Shown here: positions 1-37,015 of the stretch, one piece after another | Numbering within the stretch: position 1 is the stretch's first letter | Layout: the number at the start of each line of letters is the position of its first letter | Source of the DNA: a virus | Reading direction: 5' to 3' (one strand) | DNA: 37,015 nucleotides | IMG/VR virus record: IMGVR_UViG_3300042503_000072 | Location: 1 to 37,015 of that record | Notes under the pieces: model-generated | What the model was told of the DNA's origin: nothing | Database searches by the model: none | The model's input: the letters and a program-made list of their open reading frames with translations, nothing else | Translations under genes and position numbers: made by a program

Positions 1-126
1 TTATCTAATATAATCAAGCACTTATAATAGATAATCGGATTATATATGCTGCTTACATATTGGCATCTGGCATCTGGTCTGGCATCTGGTCTGGCATCTG
101 GTCTGGCATCTGGTCTGGCATCTGGT
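1..126. repeat. Left copy of the terminal direct repeat (circular contig overlap)
   Basis: Bases 1-126 are identical to 36884-37009. After that the two copies differ only because the right end runs on into further 12-bp repeat units. This is the usual signature of a circular or circularly permuted phage genome assembled as a linear contig. A true short terminal repeat cannot be excluded. The segment also contains a TATAAT at 23-28 and the odd palindrome ATAATC-G-GATTAT at 31-43. Confidence 0.9.
62..126. repeat. 12-bp tandem repeat, unit GGCATCTGGTCT
   Basis: A partial unit at 62-68 is followed by four exact copies of GGCATCTGGTCT (69-116) and a partial copy (117-126). The tract then degrades into CTGG-rich sequence up to about 180. 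It lies between two operons that converge on the genome junction. Read on the plus strand it would give a Leu-Ala-Ser-Gly repeat peptide from an ATG at 46, but with no Shine-Dalgarno and a terminator downstream I do not call that a gene. Copy number is probably misassembled because the contig ends inside the repeat. Confidence 0.9.
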
Positions 127-206
127 GTCTGGTGCTGGTCTAACAGTTTTAAGGGCATCTGGCTGGTTTTTCTGGGGCTGGTGATACCTACCCATCAAGC
201 AGTCGT

Positions 207-234
207 AAAAAAACCCCTAGAGGGCATCTAGGGG
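207..234 (-). terminator. Rho-independent terminator of the amidoligase operon
   Basis: Stem CCCCTAGA (214-221) pairs perfectly with TCTAGGGG (227-234) around a 5-base loop. Seven A residues at 207-213 become a U-run on the minus-strand RNA. It lies 21 bases past the stop of the last small minus-strand gene, so it closes the operon that starts at 3151. Confidence 0.85.
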
Positions 235-254
235 TTAGTTGTGGGGCTGGTTAT

Positions 255-317
255 CTAAAGTCTGAATACCAGTGTAAGCAGAGCCACAGTGCAGATCACG
301 ACTAGGGTAATAATCAT
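255..317 (-). CDS. Tiny hydrophobic peptide, 20 aa
   Basis: ATG at 317 overlaps the TGA of the preceding gene as ATGA, and a GGGG tract lies about 10 bases upstream. The product is 20 residues, almost all hydrophobic (MIITLVVICTVALLTLVFRL), long enough for one membrane span with a positive C-terminal end. It is the last gene before the terminator at 207-234. Coupling and composition support translation, but at this length chance cannot be excluded. Function unknown; possibilities are a membrane regulator, a small lysis or superinfection factor, or a partner of the amidoligase genes. Confidence 0.4.
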   Translation of the reverse strand: MIITLVVICTVALLTLVFRL

Positions 318-400
318 GCTAAGACCCCATAAGCCATCATTGCACCCAGTACCGCACCCAGTAAGCATGCGCACAGTAAATCAAAATAAGTCGGTTGCAT
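314..400 (-). CDS. Tiny hydrophobic peptide, 28 aa
   Basis: ATG at 400 overlaps the TAA of the upstream gene as TAATG, and GGGGAG lies about 9 bases before the start. The 28-residue product has a short polar N-terminus (MQPTYFDLL), two cysteines, then a Gly/Ala/Leu-rich stretch that could cross the membrane once (LLGAVLGAMMAYGVLA). Its stop overlaps the next start as ATGA. The run of start/stop overlaps (400, 317) and the good ribosome site make it more credible than its length suggests. No family recognised. Confidence 0.5.
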   Translation of the reverse strand: MQPTYFDLLCACLLGAVLGAMMAYGVLA

Positions 401-573
401 TATGTTATCTCCCCATCAAATTTGTAATCTATATCCATATCACCCATACCCCAGTCAATGTGGTCTGAATATATAAATTCCTCGACAATCTCGTTTGCCT
501 CATAGCGATCTTTTGCCTCGATCTCCTTGTAAATCGTTGTCTTTTCAATTAACCAATATCCATATTTAGGCAT
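400..573 (-). CDS. Small acidic hypothetical protein, 57 aa
   Basis: ATG at 573 is preceded by GAGGG about 8 bases upstream, just after the TAA (576-578) of the preceding gene. The product starts MPKYGYWLIEKTTIYKEIEAKD and has an acidic, aromatic C-terminal half rich in Asp, Met and Tyr. The N-terminal pattern of short strands with a helix (YEANEIVEEF) resembles small phage proteins with an 'xIEAKDRYEA' segment, but I cannot assign a family. It sits mid-operon, tightly coupled to its neighbours. Confidence 0.65.
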   Translation of the reverse strand: MPKYGYWLIEKTTIYKEIEAKDRYEANEIVEEFIYSDHIDWGMGDMDIDYKFDGEIT

Positions 574-575
574 TT

Positions 576-722
576 TTATATTCCCTCGTATTTATAAAGT
601 TCACAGTTAATAATCGTCCTGTAAGACTGCATAGCCAGCATGTCACTGAATGTCCCCAGTGACATGCCGTAGGTCTTACTGGGGGCTGAATACCAGTCGA
701 TCACATATAGTCTTGAGAGCAT
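576..722 (-). CDS. Small hypothetical protein, 48 aa
   Basis: ATG at 722 lies just behind the amidotransferase stop (725-727), with GAGG 8 bases upstream. The 48-residue product (MLSRLYVIDWYSAPSKTYGM...CELYKYEGI) has no membrane segment and mixes aromatic and polar residues. It ends 2 bases before the next start. No family recognised. The ribosome site and tight packing within the operon support it as a real gene. Confidence 0.6.
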   Translation of the reverse strand: MLSRLYVIDWYSAPSKTYGMSLGTFSDMLAMQSYRTIINCELYKYEGI

Positions 723-724
723 GA

Positions 725-1708
725 TTAAACCTCGCTATATGAGTTATATGGCTTTAGGGCAAAGTCCACTCTGGCACACTTGTGGTCTGTTATGCCCTCA
801 ATAAACCATTCTTCATTGATCTCCCCAGACATCAGCATTTCTGCCAAGTCCAGAAAAGCATTGACCCCAAAGACATCCACAAAGGCATCCAGTTTGCGAG
901 TGCTGATCTTACTGGCATCTTCGAAACCCATTATTAGTAGATCGTCCAGAGTGTTCTCCAGATCGTAGTAGTCTGGATAGTAGTACTCTCTGGAGTTGTA
1001 CACACTGCCAGAGCCTACGCCGTACCCAGTGCTATACGCCACTGGCAGTCTGGTGTCTGGCACTTCTTTGGATTGCTTGATTGCTTGTGATTGTGCCTTT
1101 TTGCTTTTCTTTGCTGGTGTCTTACTGGCACTTAGACTGGCAGTCCATGCGTAGGTGTTGGAGAGCCACAAGCCAGCCCAATACACTCCAGAGGTCTGGT
1201 TCACGACTGCTTGTCTGCCGTTATTATCCATCAGCACAAACTTATTGCTTGAGCCAATATGCGTACCAATAATGGCCGCAAATTCTGGAGTGAACGCATA
1301 GTCTGGATTACCAGCCAGCATAGGTCTTAGATAGTCCCTAATGTAGTGCCATGTATCCGACTTGCTGGTGTCTGCCTTATTGCCAGTGGACAAAATGCCA
1401 TTGTGCATGAGCCAGAGTTCAATACCATGCTCTTGCTGGTTCAGCACTTCATACGGATGACAGTTGGTCAAGTCCGTATCTCCATGCGTACGCATGCGGA
1501 GATGGAACGCACAATTTTTGCCAGCAATGTGATTTTGATAAAACTGGACAAAATCGTCTGCCGATACTGGCAGGATTTTCTCGACAATCAATGCGCCATC
1601 TTTGGCATACATAACGCCTACGCCGTCTGAGTTGTAGTCGTAAAAATCTGCCAGCCAGTCACGGGATAGTGCTGGAGAGTTTTGGTTTTGGGTAATGAGT
1701 AAACACAT
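725..1708 (-). CDS. Class II glutamine amidotransferase-like protein
   Basis: The 327-residue protein starts MCLLIT. In N-terminal-nucleophile amidotransferases Cys2 becomes the N-terminal nucleophile after Met removal and releases ammonia from glutamine. Family-like signals follow in order: DYNSDGVGVMY (about 24-34), LRMRTHGDTDLTNCHPYEV (about 70-88) and LWLMHNGIL (about 98-106, the Asn-Gly oxyanion loop). The last 130 residues are Lys/Ser-rich, then Tyr-rich (REYYYPDYYDLEN), and match nothing I know. AAAAGGA precedes the start. It lies 30 bases downstream of the amidoligase gene, a pairing described for phages in comparative studies of amidoligases. It probably supplies ammonia to, or reverses, the amidoligase reaction. 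The substrate is unknown. Confidence 0.8.
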   Translation of the reverse strand: MCLLITQNQNSPALSRDWLADFYDYNSDGVGVMYAKDGALIVEKILPVSADDFVQFYQNHIAGKNCAFHLRMRTHGDTDLTNCHPYEVLNQQEHGIELWLMHNGILSTGNKADTSKSDTWHYIRDYLRPMLAGNPDYAFTPEFAAIIGTHIGSSNKFVLMDNNGRQAVVNQTSGVYWAGLWLSNTYAWTASLSASKTPAKKSKKAQSQAIKQSKEVPDTRLPVAYSTGYGVGSGSVYNSREYYYPDYYDLENTLDDLLIMGFEDASKISTRKLDAFVDVFGVNAFLDLAEMLMSGEINEEWFIEGITDHKCARVDFALKPYNSYSEV

Positions 1709-1738
1709 ATTTTTTAAGTCCTTTTCGTGAGTTGATTT

Positions 1739-3151
1739 TTATACTTCTACTGCTAATGATGGTTTTACAGTCTGGCGTAAGTTGTCTGCCAGCGCATATC
1801 CCTTTTCTTTTAAATACACTCTTAAAAAACGAGTGTCCTTCCTATGCTCTGGCATGCAGATAAACTCCAGAAACTTTGCCGTTGTCAATTCACTGGCACT
1901 GGCACTGGCAGTAAAGTGCCAGCATGCAAAACTAAACTCTAGACATGCGATCATTGTTTCGTACTTGAGTGTCCCCTTGAATAAGCGAAACTCAATCGTC
2001 CGATCATTTTTAAAATTCAGTGCTTCGTATCGGTCTGCATTTAAACGCCGTATCTGCTCGTCCTTGTCCTTGCTAGAGTGAACGCTATCCCTTAGCCAGT
2101 GCTTATCTTCTTTTTTGTTTTTGATCTTGCTATATGACGCATCAGACCTACGAGCAATGGCTTTGACCAAACCGATATTGTCAGGATCATTGATAAAAAG
2201 CACCATCTTTGCCGCATGCAATGTAGTCATACTGGACTTGCATACATGGACATGCAGTCCGCATGTGCTGGTATCGTGACTGGTAAGACCTGCCGTCCTG
2301 TTTTTAAAATACTGGAGTTGTGCCTTATGGACATCCAGACCAGTGTAGGCAGTCACCATCTCGAAACCATTGTCCAGACTGCCGTCCTCCTCCATCAGAC
2401 AATATGTGTGCCTTATGCCGTCCTCGTCCTTGTAATCAGACATGCCATCTAGCAGGACTTTGGCTCTGGTGTCCTTGTCGTAATCGTCTGATACTTCGAT
2501 CTCCAACTCCAGACCTAGTAAGACCCTCGGAGAGCGCATGTCATAACTGGACGGTATATGACCCAGATTGCGCTTGCTGGAGTGATAACTGCCAATGTAC
2601 TCATACTCTGGCTCATCCTCCTCCTCCTGCTCTTGATCCTCCTCGTAGTCTTGATTAGTGATGTAGGTGTCCCGACTGTCTGAGTAGGTGTAATTCTCAT
2701 CTATGCAGTTGTCGCATACCCTGTAATCCCCATCATAAGTCGGTCTGCCATCATCCCACTGAAAATAGTCTGAGCAGTCCTCGCAACAGAAAAACGAGTA
2801 TCCAGTAAACCTTCTCTCCAGCATTGCTGATATGTCTGAGTGAAAACTAATCCGTGTCCCAAACTGGTTAAGGGCTTCCAAAGCACTTCCCCAGTCATCT
2901 TCCGCAATGGCTTGCGCTAAGTCTTTGCCTACTGTCTGATACATGCGCTGAGTTTCCAGAATTGAAAAGCCAGACATATTGCGAAAACGATTGCGCTGGA
3001 GTGACTGCCAGTCCTTTCCCAGTTGCTTTTCAATAATGCTTCGTCCAGTGTTAAGCAAATTACTTTTCACTTCTGAGAGAGTGTAGTAGTTGGTATTGCT
3101 GAGCATATGCTCTCGTAATTCACGCCATCTCTGCATTAGGTTTCGAGCCAT
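1739..3151 (-). CDS. Putative amidoligase with zinc-ribbon-like insert
   Basis: The 470-residue protein carries the blocks of the putative amidoligase family (COOH-NH2 ligases with a glutamine-synthetase/GCS-type fold): GLELEIE (213-219), EEDGSLDNGFEMVT (254-267), CGLHVHV (297-303) and RYEALNF...RTIEFRLFKGT (374-394). These supply the acidic metal and ATP ligands and the His-x-His. The family is predicted to join carboxyl and amino groups using ATP. The N-terminal third is helical, then comes a CCEDC (122-126)...CDNC (146-149) cluster that looks like a zinc ribbon, then a strongly acidic linker (about 168-185). GGGA lies about 8 bases before the start. First gene of the minus-strand operon, followed by the amidotransferase. 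Substrate unknown; peptide, protein or cell-wall modification are all possible. Confidence 0.8.
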   Translation of the reverse strand: MARNLMQRWRELREHMLSNTNYYTLSEVKSNLLNTGRSIIEKQLGKDWQSLQRNRFRNMSGFSILETQRMYQTVGKDLAQAIAEDDWGSALEALNQFGTRISFHSDISAMLERRFTGYSFFCCEDCSDYFQWDDGRPTYDGDYRVCDNCIDENYTYSDSRDTYITNQDYEEDQEQEEEDEPEYEYIGSYHSSKRNLGHIPSSYDMRSPRVLLGLELEIEVSDDYDKDTRAKVLLDGMSDYKDEDGIRHTYCLMEEDGSLDNGFEMVTAYTGLDVHKAQLQYFKNRTAGLTSHDTSTCGLHVHVCKSSMTTLHAAKMVLFINDPDNIGLVKAIARRSDASYSKIKNKKEDKHWLRDSVHSSKDKDEQIRRLNADRYEALNFKNDRTIEFRLFKGTLKYETMIACLEFSFACWHFTASASASELTTAKFLEFICMPEHRKDTRFLRVYLKEKGYALADNLRQTVKPSLAVEV

Positions 3152-3178
3152 TTTAAGTCCCTTACTTTAGTTGATTGA

Positions 3179-3211
3179 ATGAGATTGCTCTCATGGTTTT
3201 GCACTGCTCTC
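3179..3211. promoter_or_regulatory. Operator-like repeats downstream of the amidoligase promoter
   Basis: ATGAGA (3179-3184) and TCTCAT (3189-3194) form a perfect 6-4-6 inverted repeat. TGCTCTC occurs twice, at 3186-3192 and 3205-3211, 19 bases apart, about two helical turns. The second copy falls at the predicted transcription start of the minus-strand operon. This looks like a repressor site, though the inverted repeat could also act as an RNA hairpin in the leader. Confidence 0.45.
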
Positions 3212-3214
3212 GTG

Positions 3215-3244
3215 ATTGTAATCAAATTGTCCATCATGTGTAAA
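3215..3244 (-). promoter_or_regulatory. Predicted promoter of the amidoligase operon
   Basis: On the minus strand TTTACA (3244-3239) and TACAAT (3220-3215) are separated by 18 bases, a good match to a housekeeping sigma-70 promoter. Transcription would start near 3208, giving a leader of about 57 bases before the ATG at 3151. Confidence 0.55.
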
Positions 3245-3285
3245 CAATTCTTTTGCAGTTCTGGGGGCTTCATGTCCTGGACATG

Positions 3286-3709
3286 TTGTGGACAGTTTGA
3301 GTGGTGTTGTGGACTGATTGTGGATAGTGTTGTGGACTATGGGTATTTGGCTTGAGAGCCATAGCCAGTCTGCTTGTGGACAATGTGGATAGTTTTGAAA
3401 GACCTATTCTATGGATTTGTATATTTGTATAGGACTTCGGCGGCAATGTTATAAGCCAGCGATTTATTTGACCCGTCCAAATTGTCCATGTTGTCCACAC
3501 TTTGCCAGAGCGCCGCCAGCACTTTGCCAAAATGTTTCCCAGTTGTGGACAATGTGGACAATATAAAAACCATTAGTCCACAATACCCACAATAGATAAT
3601 CCGACATAATGATTATCTGGATTATGTAGATAATGACTTAATAATAAAAGCCTAAGTTAATATAATATAATCCCTGATAATGTTGTGTGTCTGCTCTTGC
3701 TTGTGGACA
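3286..3709. other. Putative replication origin: DnaA-box-like cluster
   Basis: TGTGGAY-type sites lie at about 3286-3294, 3307-3315, 3318-3326, 3330-3338, 3374-3383, 3384-3391, 3491-3499 (reverse), 3543-3552, 3553-3561, 3575-3583 (reverse) and 3701-3709. The best, TGTGGACAA/TTGTCCACA and TGTGGATA, differ from the DnaA box TTATCCACA by about one base. An AT-rich stretch (3560-3690) that could serve as the unwinding element follows. Seen: the repeats and the AT-rich block. Inferred: origin function through host DnaA. Confidence 0.6.
3593..3634. repeat. TAGATAAT repeats in AT-rich DNA
   Basis: TAGATAAT occurs at 3593-3600 and 3627-3634 in direct orientation, with ATTATCT inverted at 3612-3618. 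AGATAATC and GATTATCT therefore form an inverted repeat. The same element occurs near the contig ends (TTATCTA at 1-7 and 251-257; TAGATAATC at 28-36). They could be binding sites for a phage or host protein at the origin. Confidence 0.45.
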
Positions 3710-3738
3710 GCCCAGATTGCCCACATCTGCCAGCCCAC

Positions 3739-3811
3739 TGGCTCACGCTATGAGCCACTAGGGTTTACCCTAAGTGCTTAAAGTTTAGGCAGCCCCCCCC
3801 AGGGCCGGGGG
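3739..3811. other. Stacked inverted repeats and C/G tract before the terminase genes
   Basis: TGGCTCA (3739-3745) pairs with TGAGCCA (3751-3757). TAGGGT-TT-ACCCTA (3759-3772) is a perfect palindrome that extends to CACT/AGTG with one bulged base (3756-3776). A run of eight C (3793-3800) and GGGGG (3807-3811) can form a third hairpin. This dense dyad block directly ahead of the small terminase gene is where a packaging (cos or pac) site is often found. It could equally belong to the origin or be a transcription-control structure. Confidence 0.35.
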
Positions 3812-3890
3812 TGATGGTCATGTGTCGGTGTAGGTTCCGCGAACAATTTTTTTTCTTTTATGGAATCAGCCCACCCCCCCATTTTTAAAA

Positions 3891-3926
3891 TTTATTTTTT
3901 GCAAAAACTTTGATACACTCACGCGT
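3891..3926 (+). promoter_or_regulatory. Predicted late promoter giving a leaderless transcript
   Basis: An extended -10 element TGATACACT (3911-3919) ends 7 bases before the ATG at 3927, with TTTATT as a possible weak -35 at 3891-3896. Transcription would start at or next to the ATG. This agrees with the absence of any Shine-Dalgarno there. Motif match only. Confidence 0.4.
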
Positions 3927-4379
3927 ATGTTCCAAAGCTTCCACTACGAACCTCGCAAGCTCGAAGCCACAGAAGCCCGGCTCGAAGCCATCATGAAAGC
4001 CGCCAAGCTCGGCCTAAAGGGTGACTCGTTGGCGTTAGCCGCAGGGATGACGCCTACCGAATACAGGCAACTGATCTTGTTTGACCCAATCGCTGAATAC
4101 GCAGAACTCAAAGGGAGAGCAGATGGAGAGCGTGAAATGTCTGAAGTCTTGCATCTTGCTGCAAAAGAAGGTGACGCCAAAGCCGCCCTCGCCGTCTTGC
4201 AACACCAGCACGGGTGGGTTGCCAAGCAACAGCTTTCAATCGACGTTGAACAACGAATATCTATCACGGCAGCGCTTGAATCAGCGCAATCAAGAGTTAT
4301 CAACGCTCTGGAAAGCCAACCCGCCCAAACTGTAGACTTTAAAGAACTACCCACCAAACAGGAACAAAAAGCAGCCTAA
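3927..4379 (+). CDS. terS: Probable terminase small subunit
   Basis: The 150-residue protein sits directly before the large terminase, and the stop and start overlap as TAATG (4377-4381). Residues 12-55 form helices around an expected helix-turn-helix (GLKGDSLALAAGMTPTEYRQL), as in small terminase subunits that bind the packaging site. A central helical part (EREMSEVLHLAAKEGDAKAALAVLQHQHGW) is typical of terS-like and transposase-like HTH phage proteins. The C-terminus is polar and may contact the large subunit. No ribosome site is visible before the ATG, which follows a promoter-like element closely. An alternative start at Met23 also lacks one. Assignment rests mainly on position and the HTH. 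Confidence 0.7.
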   Translation: MFQSFHYEPRKLEATEARLEAIMKAAKLGLKGDSLALAAGMTPTEYRQLILFDPIAEYAELKGRADGEREMSEVLHLAAKEGDAKAALAVLQHQHGWVAKQQLSIDVEQRISITAALESAQSRVINALESQPAQTVDFKELPTKQEQKAA

Positions 4380-25531: not shown

Positions 25532-25888
25532 ATGAGTGAATACATAGAAACCGCAAAAGAAGTCGCTGGTAAAGCGATTGGCAGACATGGACTAATTTAC
25601 ATCACCATCATTGTGGCGATGGGTGTAGGGGCTTCAGTAGTCCTAGAAGAAGGCAAAATGGCTGCCGTAATGGGATTGCTAGGCGCATCCTTAACTGCGC
25701 TTATATCCATGCTTAACGGCGTTGCAGGGGCTACCCCAAAGCAAGACAAGCCTGAGTTTGAGATTATGAAGCAGCTCATTGAGCGTTTAGACAAGATGGC
25801 AGACCGTGATCCTATGAGCGTGCAGGTTGAAGGCGACAAGGTTACTGTTCGCAAAGGCGATAACGAAACCTCGGTAGGGAGAAAATAA
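25532..25888 (+). CDS. Two-span membrane protein, holin-like
   Basis: The 118-residue protein starts one base after the previous stop. Two hydrophobic spans, LIYITIIVAMGVGASVVLEE (about 21-40) and AAVMGLLGASLTALISMLNGVAG (about 44-67), are followed by a charged cytoplasmic-type tail (EIMKQLIERLDKMADRDPM...). Two spans plus a charged C-tail is a class II holin-like topology. A second holin-type gene follows immediately, so this could be a holin, an antiholin or an unrelated membrane protein. Confidence 0.7.
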   Translation: MSEYIETAKEVAGKAIGRHGLIYITIIVAMGVGASVVLEEGKMAAVMGLLGASLTALISMLNGVAGATPKQDKPEFEIMKQLIERLDKMADRDPMSVQVEGDKVTVRKGDNETSVGRK

Positions 25889-26298
25889 TGTTAGGACTAG
25901 ACACCATCGTTGGCGTAGGAATGAAGCTAATTGACAAATTGATACCTGACCCACAAGCCAAAGCACAAGCCCAGCTAGATCTAGCCAAATTAGCCCAAGA
26001 AGGCAAATTGGCTGAAATACAGGCTGATACGGCAGAAGCGCAAGAAGTAACCAAACGGGCGCAAGCGGACATGGCAAGCGATAGTTGGCTATCCAAAAAC
26101 ATCCGTCCTATGACGCTAATCTTCATTCTTGGTGGTTATTTTATATTTGCCATGATGTCTGCTTTTGGCAACAATGCCAATGAAAAGTACGTTGAGCTGC
26201 TAGGGCAGTGGGGTATGCTAGTCATGTCGTTTTACTTTGGTGGCCGCACCCTTGAGAAAATCATGGATATGAAAGCGAAAGAAAAAGATGCAAAGTAA
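25888..26298 (+). CDS. Holin (3TM, GTA-type holin family)
   Basis: ATG overlaps the previous TAA. The 136-residue protein opens with an amphipathic segment (DTIVGVGMKLIDKLIPDPQAKAQAQLDLAKL), then a charged helix, then WLSKNIRPMTLIFILGGYFIFAMMSAF and ELLGQWGMLVMSFYFGGRTLEKI. The 'W-x(4)-RP' ahead of two spans is characteristic of the holin family found in gene transfer agents and Gram-negative phages. It should form the inner-membrane lesion that releases the endolysin encoded in the next, overlapping gene (11 bases). Confidence 0.85.
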   Translation: MLGLDTIVGVGMKLIDKLIPDPQAKAQAQLDLAKLAQEGKLAEIQADTAEAQEVTKRAQADMASDSWLSKNIRPMTLIFILGGYFIFAMMSAFGNNANEKYVELLGQWGMLVMSFYFGGRTLEKIMDMKAKEKDAK

Positions 26299-26812
26299 CT
26301 TTGACAAGTGCTTGGCGCTTATGTTGGCGCATGAGGGCGGCTTTGTAAACCACCCCCAAGACCCAGGCGGTATGACAAACCTTGGCGTGACCAAGCGAGT
26401 GTGGGAAGAATGGGTAGGGCATGACGTTGACGAAAAGCAAATGCGCGCCCTAACCCCTGAAACCGTTGCACCACTTTATAAGAGGAAATACTGGGATGCT
26501 TGCCGATCTGATGAGCTTGTGGCTGGTGTTGATTATTGCGTTTTTGATGTCGCTGTTAATTCAGGCCCCGGACGCGCCATTAAGTTTTTGCAGTCGTGCG
26601 TTGGGGTTACTGCTGATGGCGGTTTTGGGCCTGCTACTCTTGCTGCCGTAGAAAAAGCGGAAGAAGATCCTGAGCGTTTGATCGAGCTTTACTCTGCCAA
26701 ACGCCTTGAGTTCCTGCAATCCCTAAAGACCTTTGAAACCTTTGGTAAAGGCTGGAGCCGCCGGGTTGCAGAAGTCAAAGACAAAGCTCTAACTATGGTC
26801 GCCAAGCCCTAA
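26288..26812 (+). CDS. Endolysin, glycoside hydrolase family 108 with PG-binding domain
   Basis: The 174-residue protein begins FDKCLALMLAHEGGFVNHPQDPGGMTNLGVT, the GH108 (N-acetylmuramidase) signature, with Glu16 in HEGGF the likely catalytic acid. A peptidoglycan-binding type 3 domain follows (CVFDVAVNSGPGRAIKFLQSCVGVTADGGFGPATLAAV, about 76-113). There is no signal peptide, so it depends on the holin for export. It degrades the cell wall at lysis. Its end overlaps by 24 bases the end of a minus-strand gene (26789). Confidence 0.93.
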   Translation: MQSNFDKCLALMLAHEGGFVNHPQDPGGMTNLGVTKRVWEEWVGHDVDEKQMRALTPETVAPLYKRKYWDACRSDELVAGVDYCVFDVAVNSGPGRAIKFLQSCVGVTADGGFGPATLAAVEKAEEDPERLIELYSAKRLEFLQSLKTFETFGKGWSRRVAEVKDKALTMVAKP

Positions 26813-34445: not shown

Positions 34446-34468
34446 ATATCCCTCACGAAAGGAATTTG

Positions 34469-36769
34469 ATGAACTTTTTAGAATATATCACGAACTTAGC
34501 CCCTGAAGGCGAAACAGCCTTAATTGTGCGTCAAAAACCACAGTTAGACGGCAACGGGCTGATGCAGAGCCATGCCGATGGCACGATCAAGTGTACGTGG
34601 CCTGCCTTTTTGCCTACCGCCAAGATCAAGCCCGACTGGGCAATCTACGGCAACACAGGCTCGTTTATTCTTGACCGCTTTGCCGATGGCAAGGTGTCAG
34701 CTTCTGCCGCCAACTGTGAGTACGTCCTTGTAATGATGCTTGATGACATCGGCACTAAGTCTAAAGAACCACCGCTTGCGCCTACATGGATCATGGAAAC
34801 GTCTGAGGGTTCTTACCAATGGGGCTACGCGTTTAGTGAGCAACCATCCAAGGGCGACTTTACCGCAGCGATCAAGGCGATTGCCAAGGCAGGCTTTACC
34901 GACCCCGGCGCTACCAACGCCGTTCGCAATTTCCGTCTGCCCGGATCAGTCAATCTCAAGCCTGGGCGCGGTAACTTTGCCTCCGTCCTAGTCGAGTTCC
35001 ACCCCGAGCGTGAGTACACTCTTGCTGACATCTGCACCGCCCTTGACGTGGTGCCTGATCCAACCGACACCGCACAAAACAATCCTATCCGTCTTGCTGA
35101 CACTGGCAAGGACTCGGTGATGACGTGGCTCAATGAGCAGGGCTTGGTGTTGTCTGCCCCCAACGGTGAGGGCTGGATGGGTGTGGTTTGCCCTAACAAC
35201 GGTGAGCATACCGATGGCAACATTGAAGGACGCTATAAGCCGCTTGACCGTAGTTACTGCTGCCTGCATGGGCATTGCGTCGACTTTAGTTCGCAGATGT
35301 TCCTTGACTGGGTAGCCGACAACGGTGGCCCCGAAGTCGATCATGGCTTGCGTGACGAGTTGATTGCCGAAAAGATGAACCTTGCCTTGTCCAAGATCAC
35401 CCCCAACGAGGTGTTTCGAGATACCGCAGCCGAACTGATCGCTGAGGTCGAGCGCAAGGAACTGGGTCGCATTGAGAAGGCGCAGTGGTACGAGCGTTTT
35501 GCCTACATCCAAGACGATGAGTCTTACTTTGATATGCAAGATAGGCGTGAGATAGGGCGCCAGACGTTCAATGCGTTGTTCCGTCATATTCCCTGCAAGT
35601 CGATCCATACCGCCCGTAAGGTCGAAGCGTCCATCTGCTTTGATGAGAACAGGCAAGCGATGGGCGCAAAGGCGCTGGTTGGCGTTACCTACGCTGCTGG
35701 CGAGGACGTGATTGTTACCCGTGATGGCGATCTCTTTGGCAATCGCTGGCGTAACGCTAGGCCAGACGTTCAGAATTTGCGTGATGGTGACATTTCTATG
35801 TGGATGAACCATTGCCAAGAGCTTGTACCTGAACAGGCAGAGCTAGAGCATATCCTTGATGTCATGGCTTTCAAGGTGCAACACCCTGAGATCAAGGTCA
35901 ATCACGCTATCTTGCATGCTGGCGATGAGGGGTCGGGCAAGGACACGTTTTGGGCGCCGTTCATCTGGGCAGTCTGCGGCGATCACTTAAAGAACCGTGG
36001 AATCATGGACAACAACAGCGTGAACAGCCAATGGGGTTATCAGCTTGAGTCCGAGATTCTAATCATTAACGAACTTAAAGAGCCGGACGCTGCCACTCGC
36101 CGCCAACTGGCTAACCAACTCAAACCGATCATTGCAGCGCCGCCTGAGATGCTGCCAATCAATCGCAAGGGCTTGCACCCTTATTACATGGCTAACCGCC
36201 TGTTCGTCTTAGCGTTCAGTAACGATCCAGTACCTATCAGCCTTGCAAGTCAGGATCGGCGCTGGTTCTGCGTGTGGTCTACCGCACCCCGCATGGACTC
36301 ACGCCAAGCCAAGAAGATATGGGATTGGTACAGAAGCGGCGGTTTTGGTATGATCGCTCGCTTTTTGCGTGCCAGGGACGTTTCGCAGTTCAATCCTAGC
36401 GCACCGCCAATGTGGACGGAGTTCAAAGCCAACTTGGTTGAGCATGGTATGAGCATGGCCGAGTCGTACTTGGTTGATATGCTGCGTGAGCGCAAGGGCG
36501 ACTTTACTAAGGGCGTGATCGGCTCACCGTTCCATAGCTTATGTGATCGCTTGGCAGGGCAAGCGCCTGCTGGCGTGAAAGTGCCGCAAGCAGCGTTACT
36601 CCATGCCCTTAAGGAAGCAGGCTGGATTGACCGTGGGCGTATCAAATCAAGGGAGTTTGATACCAAGAAGCATGTGTTCTGCGCGCCTGATTTAGAGGAC
36701 GTTAGCAAGTCAGACTTGCGCCGCATGGTAGAGGAGAACCCTGCACCGCGCATGGTGGTTGTAAAGTAA
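34469..36769 (+). CDS. Primase-helicase with RepB-like primase and DUF5906-type helicase
   Basis: ATG 34469 is preferred over a TTG just before it, since AAAGGA is well placed. The 766-residue protein has an archaeo-eukaryotic-type primase N-terminus (DWAIYGNTG, MLDDIGTK, ETSEGSYQWGYAFSEQP, TNAVRNFRLPGSVNLKPG; about 57-167). A small zinc-binding-like segment with CPNNGEH and CCLHGHC (about 242-271) follows, then a superfamily 3/AAA+ helicase with Walker A GDEGSGKD (486-493), Walker B LIINE (532-536) and SNDPVPISLASQDRRW (585-600). It should start synthesis and unwind DNA for the polymerase. A plausible initiator at the origin. Residue numbers count from the upstream TTG. Confidence 0.88.
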   Translation: MNFLEYITNLAPEGETALIVRQKPQLDGNGLMQSHADGTIKCTWPAFLPTAKIKPDWAIYGNTGSFILDRFADGKVSASAANCEYVLVMMLDDIGTKSKEPPLAPTWIMETSEGSYQWGYAFSEQPSKGDFTAAIKAIAKAGFTDPGATNAVRNFRLPGSVNLKPGRGNFASVLVEFHPEREYTLADICTALDVVPDPTDTAQNNPIRLADTGKDSVMTWLNEQGLVLSAPNGEGWMGVVCPNNGEHTDGNIEGRYKPLDRSYCCLHGHCVDFSSQMFLDWVADNGGPEVDHGLRDELIAEKMNLALSKITPNEVFRDTAAELIAEVERKELGRIEKAQWYERFAYIQDDESYFDMQDRREIGRQTFNALFRHIPCKSIHTARKVEASICFDENRQAMGAKALVGVTYAAGEDVIVTRDGDLFGNRWRNARPDVQNLRDGDISMWMNHCQELVPEQAELEHILDVMAFKVQHPEIKVNHAILHAGDEGSGKDTFWAPFIWAVCGDHLKNRGIMDNNSVNSQWGYQLESEILIINELKEPDAATRRQLANQLKPIIAAPPEMLPINRKGLHPYYMANRLFVLAFSNDPVPISLASQDRRWFCVWSTAPRMDSRQAKKIWDWYRSGGFGMIARFLRARDVSQFNPSAPPMWTEFKANLVEHGMSMAESYLVDMLRERKGDFTKGVIGSPFHSLCDRLAGQAPAGVKVPQAALLHALKEAGWIDRGRIKSREFDTKKHVFCAPDLEDVSKSDLRRMVEENPAPRMVVVK

Positions 36770-36805
36770 GCCGTTCGCTTTTTGCGTGCCGTTCGCTTTT
36801 TGCGT
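36770..36805. repeat. 18-bp tandem duplication after the primase-helicase gene
   Basis: GCCGTTCGCTTTTTGCGT occurs twice back to back (36770-36787 and 36788-36805). A 16-base part, TCGCTTTTTGCGTGCC, also occurs inside the primase-helicase gene at 36358-36373, where it encodes part of ARFLRAR. The 3' flank therefore appears to derive from the gene by duplication, or the motif has a shared function. Confidence 0.75.
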
Positions 36806-36883: not shown

Positions 36884-37015
36884 TTATCTAATATAATCAA
36901 GCACTTATAATAGATAATCGGATTATATATGCTGCTTACATATTGGCATCTGGCATCTGGTCTGGCATCTGGTCTGGCATCTGGTCTGGCATCTGGTCTG
37001 GCATCTGGTCTGGCA
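36884..37015. repeat. Right copy of the terminal repeat with 12-bp tandem units
   Basis: Matches bases 1-126 exactly through 37009. It then continues with further GGCATCTGGTCT units to the contig end (full units at 36952-37011, then a partial unit). The contig therefore stops inside the tandem repeat, and the true copy number is unknown. Confidence 0.9.

What the first reader, a model, noticed from the sequence alone, without database searches (positions are those of the whole stretch)
255..3151. Amidoligase + class II amidotransferase + micro-gene operon: candidate uncharacterised modification system
Seen: a six-gene minus-strand operon with its own promoter, operator and terminator. Known: amidoligases form carboxyl-amine bonds with ATP, and are sometimes paired with N-terminal-nucleophile amidotransferases in phages. 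Inference: the pair builds or edits an amide on a phage or host molecule, with the tiny hydrophobic peptides as substrate, anchor or effector. The target of this phage enzyme pair is, as far as I know, undetermined.
Basis: partly seen in the sequence, partly recalled or inferred. Interest (0 to 1): 0.8.

Follow-up and report, generated by a model that had tools for sequence, protein, structure and literature searches.

The report
Phage amidoligase–glutaminase gene pair
A freshwater phage carries an inseparable pair of enzymes, one that makes amide bonds and one that releases ammonia from glutamine, in a self-regulated operon that ends in two tiny membrane peptides; the enzymes are of known types, but what they modify is unknown, and the DNA of the operon is written in an odd, phage-specific set of short words.

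Summary
Window 255-3151 (-) is a six-gene operon: a glutamine-synthetase-fold amidoligase (PF12224 type), a class II glutamine amidotransferase with an intact active site, two small soluble-looking proteins, and two overlapping single-helix membrane micropeptides (28 and 20 aa). It has a conserved operator-like palindrome, a plausible promoter and a covarying terminator. The two enzymes are an obligate pair: in four searches, every locus with room had them adjacent in the order amidoligase-GATase (78/78, 72/72, 74/74, 76/76). The pair occurs in at least seven phage gene backgrounds, and in Polynucleobacter integrated elements beside SIR2-HerA. The micropeptides are real but lineage-specific. 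The kind is known: homologous enzymes belong to the phage 'peptidoglycan modification cassette' predicted in 2009. This is a stripped-down variant, without a detectable GGCT. The likeliest role is glutamine-dependent amidation of a membrane-proximal carboxylate, perhaps a wall precursor; the target is undetermined. Unexpected: each phage's amidoligase and GATase share a private vocabulary of synonymous short words (window CCAG/CTGG) far above codon usage, neighbouring genes, T7 or lambda. In the window's clade it persists after synonymous sites saturate. I cannot explain it.

The parts
1739..3151 (-). amidoligase (GS-fold carboxylate-amine ligase, Amidoligase_2 type) with N-terminal helical region and CxxC...CxxC zinc-ribbon-like module (C123, C126, C146, C149)
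   Evidence: PF12224 E=0.0043 for the window protein and 42/42 relatives match, best 1.6e-9; PHROG 16683, 2443, 7469; invariant ExE, DGS...GFE, CGxHxH, TxExRxF motifs; AlphaFold pLDDT 86.5, VIA Z 11-11.7 to YbdK, glutamate-cysteine ligase and GS over residues 202-453
725..1708 (-). class II (Ntn, Cys2) glutamine amidotransferase
   Evidence: GATase_4 E=0.0038, 28/36 relatives match; invariant C2, R71, T74, H75, G76, N103, G104, D118; AlphaFold pLDDT 83.5; Foldseek best to GlmS glutaminase domain, EgtC, PurF
576..722 (-). 48 aa accessory micro-gene
   Evidence: homologue in L015 at the same place (MNMLSQLYLIDLYDQ...)
400..573 (-). 57 aa accessory micro-gene
   Evidence: similar small proteins in L015, and of the same type in L004 and L017, at the same place
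314..400 (-). TM1: 28 aa single-helix membrane micropeptide MQPTYFDLLCACLLGAVLGAMMAYGVLA
   Evidence: counterparts of 26-32 aa in all 12 members of the phage group inspected; TM-like micro-ORF next to GATase in 23/59 loci vs 9/288 other gene ends
255..317 (-). TM2: 20 aa membrane micropeptide MIITLVVICTVALLTLVFRL, overlapping the TM1 stop (ATGA)
   Evidence: identical in L004 with 10 nt differences, all synonymous; counterparts in all 12 inspected members
212..236 (-). intrinsic terminator of the operon
   Evidence: 10-bp stem, T tract; covarying stem in relatives
3215..3244 (-). candidate promoter TTTACA-18-TACAAT
   Evidence: 10/12 consensus match, conserved in L004 and L008
3179..3194 (.). 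operator-like palindrome ATGAGA-N4-TCTCAT between promoter and start codon
   Evidence: single perfect copy in the window; kept in L004, L005, L007, L008
1..3900 (.). word-dialect island: region sharing the CCAG/CTGG-rich 5-mer vocabulary, ending near the terminase small subunit start (3927)
   Evidence: sliding score z 2.8-5.8 inside, drops to 0.3 at 3901-4200; the far side (primase, to 36769) is also outside
66..126 (.). 12-bp tandem array TCTGGCATCTGG just 3' of the operon
   Evidence: arrays also seen 3' of the operon in L005, L007, L008

Best explanation
The two enzymes work as one glutamine-dependent amide synthetase split over two polypeptides. The GATase hydrolyses glutamine at Cys2 and gives ammonia (or a glutamyl-derived amine) to the GS-fold amidoligase, which activates a carboxylate with ATP and converts it to an amide. 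The substrate is most likely at the inner face of the cell membrane, for example a carboxylate of a peptidoglycan precursor. In this phage group the two membrane micropeptides would hold or tune the complex there. The operon is probably expressed from its own repressible promoter, apart from the late genes, and the modification would alter the wall, for example against competing phages. Shown here: enzyme families, intact active-site residues, obligate pairing, regulatory anatomy and the reality of the micropeptides. Inferred: ammonia transfer (about 0.6), envelope target (about 0.35), benefit in superinfection or wall protection (about 0.3).
For: Absolute adjacency and order in four searches from both sides. 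All residues that define a class II glutaminase site and a GS-type ligase site are invariant; best fold matches are GlmS/EgtC/PurF and YbdK/GCL/GS. Near-touching genes in many loci (gap often 2 nt) fit a complex. Micropeptides are hydrophobic enough to span a membrane, and two of them follow the pair in the window's phage group. Precedent for a wall-amidating ligase with a partner GATase: MurT/GatD (PMC3267633). Homologous phage enzymes were predicted to act on the wall (PMC5498523). Occurrence next to SIR2-HerA on Polynucleobacter integrated elements fits a phage-exclusion benefit.
Against: No substrate evidence of any kind. The GATase also resembles EgtC, which cleaves a gamma-glutamyl bond rather than feeding a synthetase. 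No natural fusion of the two genes was found. Membrane peptides are missing in most distant relatives. SIR2-HerA is absent from the third Polynucleobacter element (L089), so that neighbour is variable cargo.
Confidence: 0.4

Rival explanations
1. Make-and-edit pair: the ligase attaches an amino acid or peptide through a (gamma-)glutamyl amide, and the Ntn enzyme is an amide hydrolase that trims or reverses it, as EgtC does in ergothioneine synthesis.
For: Foldseek places EgtC next to GlmS for the GATase; YbdK and glutamate-cysteine ligase are top fold matches of the ligase.
Against: The residues that define glutaminases (R71, T74, H75, G76, N103, G104, D118) are all invariant; no third enzyme (GGCT) was found in the window genome.
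Confidence: 0.2
2. Counter-defence or defence: the pair modifies a host or competitor protein or nucleotide signal and is carried by phages and mobile elements for conflict.
For: Mostly phage-borne, rare in bacterial genomes (3/186 in the Polynucleobacter genus sample, 2/398 in its family sample); carried by integrated elements with SIR2-HerA in two of three.
Against: No PADLOC family matches either enzyme; the neighbour differs between elements.
Confidence: 0.2
3. Nitrogen or amino-acid metabolism gene set that helps the host or phage assimilate ammonia.
For: Proposed for a deep-sea Planctomycetes phage with amidoligase, GATase, GGCT and glutathione-synthase-like genes (PMC10945688).
Against: The pair lacks those partners here as far as tested; the ligase diverges faster than packaging and replication genes (L014: ligase 49% vs terL 75%, primase 75%), unlike housekeeping metabolism.
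Confidence: 0.1
4. RiPP-like system: the ligase modifies the hydrophobic micropeptides encoded at the end of the operon, which are the effectors.
For: Micropeptides are encoded directly after the GATase in many relatives and carry a frequent Asp at the membrane edge.
Against: Distant relatives have the enzyme pair without them (5/126); other lineages carry a zinc-ribbon or an amphipathic micro-protein at the same place; no obvious leader/core pattern.
Confidence: 0.07

Closest known systems
Phage 'peptidoglycan modification cassette' (phiEco32, LUZ24, RIO-1/PSA-HP1; Iyer et al. 2009 as cited in PMC5498523)
   Same: Amidoligase_2-type ligase upstream of a class II GATase in phiEco32 (genes 84, 83) and LUZ24 (18, 19); recognisable shared motifs in phiEco32; placed near replication genes
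   Different: No GGCT detected here; COOH-NH2 ligase and ATP-grasp not seen; operon opposite in direction to the terminase genes, with its own terminator and membrane micropeptides; sequence similarity very low (no reliable hhalign hit to LUZ24)
Amidoligase + GATase of OM43 phages MEP401/402 and Caudoviricetes sp. MW202733
   Same: Same two-gene unit, same order; reported as auxiliary metabolic genes of unknown role (PMC10580990)
   Different: Only 32-39% identity; no TM1/TM2 peptides seen next to the GATase
MurT/GatD lipid II amidation (Staphylococcus aureus, PMC3267633)
   Same: Works like: ATP-dependent ligase plus a separate GATase that together amidate a carboxylate of the wall precursor
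   Different: Unrelated folds: Mur ligase plus class I GATase
EgtC / GlmS / PurF class II amidotransferases
   Same: Fold and active-site residues of the GATase
   Different: Stand-alone phage protein with extra C-terminal helices

Membership tests
Amidoligase_2 / GS-like carboxylate-amine ligases | GS/GCS-like fold of the catalytic domain | tested here: met
   VIA Z 11-11.7, 183-219 aligned residues, YbdK, GCL and GS; Foldseek E 8.5e-5
Amidoligase_2 / GS-like carboxylate-amine ligases | ExE, DGS...E, HxH and ExR catalytic motifs | tested here: met
   Invariant or nearly so in 67 sequences and kept in 7 very distant ones
Amidoligase_2 / GS-like carboxylate-amine ligases | Pfam score above curated cut-off | tested here: inconclusive
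   Window 17.4 vs 22 bits; all 42 aligned members match, best E 1.6e-9
Amidoligase_2 / GS-like carboxylate-amine ligases | ATP-dependent ligase activity | not testable with these tools
   needs biochemistry
Class II glutamine amidotransferase | Cys after initiator Met; Arg, Thr-His-Gly, Asn-Gly and Asp of the glutamine site | tested here: met
   C2, R71, T74, H75, G76, N103, G104, D118 invariant in 69 sequences; correspondence to GlmS residues is from family knowledge
Class II glutamine amidotransferase | Ntn-hydrolase fold | tested here: met
   Foldseek GlmS 1.7e-5, EgtC 7e-4, PurF 2.7e-3
Class II glutamine amidotransferase | glutaminase activity | not testable with these tools
   needs biochemistry
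Phage peptidoglycan modification cassette (full) | Amidoligase_2 plus class II GATase | tested here: met
Phage peptidoglycan modification cassette (full) | gamma-glutamyl cyclotransferase (PF06094) | tested here: not met
   none in the window genome; control rang in 9 genomes
Phage peptidoglycan modification cassette (full) | second ligase PF14395 | tested here: inconclusive
   none in the window genome, but the control rang nowhere
Phage peptidoglycan modification cassette (full) | ATP-grasp enzyme | tested here: inconclusive
   none among the window proteins scanned; R2K_2 search without ringing control
Phage peptidoglycan modification cassette (full) | acts on peptidoglycan | not testable with these tools
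   prediction only, also in the literature found

The most novel reading that the evidence does not exclude
The amidoligase-GATase operon is a DNA-marked mobile island. Both strands carry a dense, phage-specific set of short words (CCAG/CTGG here; other words in other phages). In the window's clade their density is upheld after synonymous positions have been randomised, although individual sites turn over, so either an undescribed local templated-mutation process or selection for a self-label acts on this island and not on neighbouring genes.
Probability: 0.2. Interest if true: 0.75.

Novelty: new variant of a known kind. Interest (0 to 1): 0.5.

Why it matters
The search turned up hundreds of viral loci that encode this enzyme pair, and no reaction is known for it. 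The obligate pairing, the minimal two-enzyme form, its spread through many phage backbones and into integrated elements, and defined candidate membrane partners make it a good unit for finding the product. The private word vocabulary of the island, if confirmed by others, would be an unusual property of a phage gene pair and is directly testable.

Tried and rejected
Search of solved structures by sequence profile: no hit for either enzyme. Amidoligase-GATase fusions: none in 160 distant loci. Membrane peptides as a universal third component: rejected (5/126 in distant loci). Micropeptides as the phage holin: unlikely, because a holin and an endolysin match at 25888-26812. SIR2-HerA as a fixed partner: rejected, because L089 has other cargo. 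Codon usage, protein composition or dinucleotide bias as the cause of the word sharing: the signal stays with nulls that preserve protein plus codon usage and also codon-junction dinucleotides. A general feature of phage genes: rejected with T7, lambda and MEP402. A universal feature of the pair: also rejected; the MEP402 pair is ordinary (3.9-4.7), as are phiEco32 and LUZ24 (1.8, 3.1) and the Polynucleobacter copies (2.4-2.5). TGTGGAC repeats as a general operator of the family: rejected, found only in part of the window's phage group. Iyer et al. 2009 and the Marvin phage paper could not be read, so their content is cited only through later papers.
Full report
WHAT IS THERE. The minus strand of window 255-3151 carries six ORFs read in one direction. 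The first two are enzymes. The 470 aa protein is an Amidoligase_2-type ligase: the single sequence scores below the Pfam cut-off (17.4 vs 22 bits), but all 42 members of its alignment match that family, best 1.6e-9, and two of its four PHROG matches are named amidoligase. The AlphaFold model (pLDDT 86.5) has a GS/GCS-like catalytic domain at residues 202-453: VIA Z 11.7 to a YbdK-like protein, 11.0 to plant glutamate-cysteine ligase, 10-11 to glutamine synthetases; PafA and Dop appear in Foldseek. In 67 related sequences ExE, DGSL..GFE, CGLHVH and T-x-E-F-R-x-F are invariant or nearly so. The 327 aa protein is a class II glutamine amidotransferase: Cys2, R71, T74-H75-G76, N103-G104 and D118 are invariant in 69 sequences, and its model matches the glutaminase domain of GlmS, then EgtC and PurF.

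REGULATION AND MICRO-GENES. Upstream lies a promoter-like site kept in close relatives and a palindrome ATGAGA-N4/5-TCTCAT between it and the start codon; downstream a terminator whose stem pairs change together between relatives. The four micro-genes are not artefacts. L015, whose GATase is about 60% identical, has homologues of the 48 aa and 57 aa proteins in the same order, then a membrane peptide. In the window and all 11 relatives inspected of the same phage group (terminase and primase neighbours), two hydrophobic micropeptides follow, one of 26-32 aa and one of 19-21 aa that starts at or next to the stop of the first. The 20 aa peptide is identical in L004 although 10 of 60 bases differ, all silently; 1 of 200,000 simulations gave that.

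THE PAIR IS OBLIGATE; THE MICROPEPTIDES ARE NOT. Loci found through the GATase always have the amidoligase directly upstream where there is room (78 of 78). Loci found through the amidoligase always have the GATase directly downstream (72 of 72, of which five come from a GATase search of genomes). Two further searches aimed at distant relatives, down to about 25% identity, gave 74 of 74 and 76 of 76. The sets overlap in part, but they were seeded from both genes. The close set covers at least seven different gene backgrounds, typically with packaging or structural genes transcribed away on one side. The GATase tree does not follow those backgrounds: L015 and L017, which have the window's terminase and primase neighbours, group with L086 and L032, which do not, so the unit has moved between phages. 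A membrane-type micro-ORF starts next to the GATase stop in 23 of 59 close loci against 9 of 288 other gene ends, but in only 5 of 126 distant loci. Other lineages have a zinc-ribbon or an amphipathic micro-protein there.

OUTSIDE PHAGES. Five genome contigs encode relatives. Three are Polynucleobacter chromosomal contigs in which integrase, amidoligase and GATase are followed by variable cargo and a relaxase; the cargo is SIR2 plus HerA in L090 and L091 and something else in L089 (L091 by DNA match to L090). The gene is rare in bacteria: 3 of 186 genomes of that genus sample and 2 of 398 of the family sample.

HOW IT MOST LIKELY WORKS. A GS-type ligase makes an acyl-phosphate from a carboxylate and ATP and then an amide; a class II GATase makes ammonia from glutamine (established knowledge of the families). 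Total co-occurrence, fixed order and near-touching genes make it likely that they form one glutamine-dependent amide synthetase. The membrane peptides of the window's group suggest work at the membrane, and the best known precedent of a ligase plus partner GATase there is the amidation of lipid II by MurT/GatD (PMC3267633; unrelated folds). Papers that mention related phage genes repeat a 2009 prediction of cell-wall modification against superinfection (PMC5498523, PMC10580990) or suggest nitrogen metabolism (PMC10945688); I found no experimentally shown reaction. The envelope target is therefore an inference.

COMPARISON WITH THE KNOWN. phiEco32 (genes 84, 83) and LUZ24 (18, 19) have the same two enzyme kinds in the same order within a larger cassette with GGCT-like and ATP-grasp/RimK genes. 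The window genome has no GGCT hit, and no ATP-grasp or second ligase was seen, although those two searches had no ringing control. The window ends overlap within the identical contig L003 by about 126 bases, so the genome is essentially complete. Verdict: a stripped-down variant of a known kind.

THE UNEXPECTED PART. The operon is far richer in CCAG and CTGG than the rest of the genome (27 vs 8 per kb). Shuffling synonymous codons (protein and codon usage kept) shows that the amidoligase and GATase of the same phage share 5-mers strongly (mean z 7.8), the same amidoligase with GATases of other phages much less (2.1), and with other genes of its own locus hardly (1.1). Among length-matched adjacent gene pairs, amidoligase-GATase has median z 7.8 against 2.3 (P 5e-20), and in distant relatives 3.7 against 2.4 (P 3e-14). 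With codon-junction dinucleotides preserved as well, the means are 4.7 against 1.3 (P 1e-18). T7, lambda and MEP402 pairs average 2.2-4.0, maximum 6.0; the window pair has 13.1. The sharing also holds against the reverse complement (5.2 vs 1.4), which points to double-stranded DNA rather than RNA. Words differ by phage: CCAG/CTGG in the window's clade, CGAC in L019, GCGC/CGCG in L028, GCTC in L024, GATC in L073-L078. In the window the shared vocabulary covers about 1-3900, including non-coding flanks and the tandem array, and stops near the terminase small subunit and at the primase. Between the window and L014, four-fold sites differ at 64-71% (near random), yet CCAG/CTGG stays about twofold enriched in both, with 5 of 28 ligase sites and 10 of 21 GATase sites shared. 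Caveats: controls are mostly core genes, so other accessory operons might behave alike; the window primase also has a high internal repeat score (z 11); phages in the set are related, so the P values overstate independence; MEP402, phiEco32, LUZ24 and the Polynucleobacter copies do not show it. I have no supported mechanism.

Noticed in passing
window 1-3900; also L004-L008, L014, L017, L019, L024, L028 and others: Private short-word vocabulary of the amidoligase-GATase island, beyond codon usage and dinucleotides, different in each phage lineage.
   Followed up: partly
window 3286-3708: About 11 copies of TGTGGAC/TGTGGAT between the amidoligase and terminase small subunit genes (TTGTGGAC: 10 in the window vs 1 expected, 7 of them here); some resemble DnaA boxes. 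Candidate origin or control region; only part of the window's phage group has it.
   Followed up: partly
window 66-126 and 36949-37015; L005, L007, L008, L092 3' of the GATase: 12-bp tandem array directly after the operon terminator; relatives have other short tandem arrays at the same place.
   Followed up: no
L090 2931-11571, L091, L089: Polynucleobacter integrated elements: integrase, amidoligase, GATase, then SIR2-HerA (L090, L091) or other cargo (L089), then a relaxase.
   Followed up: partly
L092 4655-6001: Amidoligase whose N-terminal region is replaced by a long FNADGFDEDG-type repeat instead of the CxxC module.
   Followed up: no
window 34466-36805: Primase gene with unusually repetitive synonymous word use (z 11) and an 18-bp tandem duplication just after it (36770-36805).
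   Followed up: no
L024, L030, L034, L035, L036, L060 directly after the GATase: A 29-40 aa zinc-ribbon micro-protein (CPICxxxKRWG...CxxC) takes the place of the membrane peptide.
   Followed up: no
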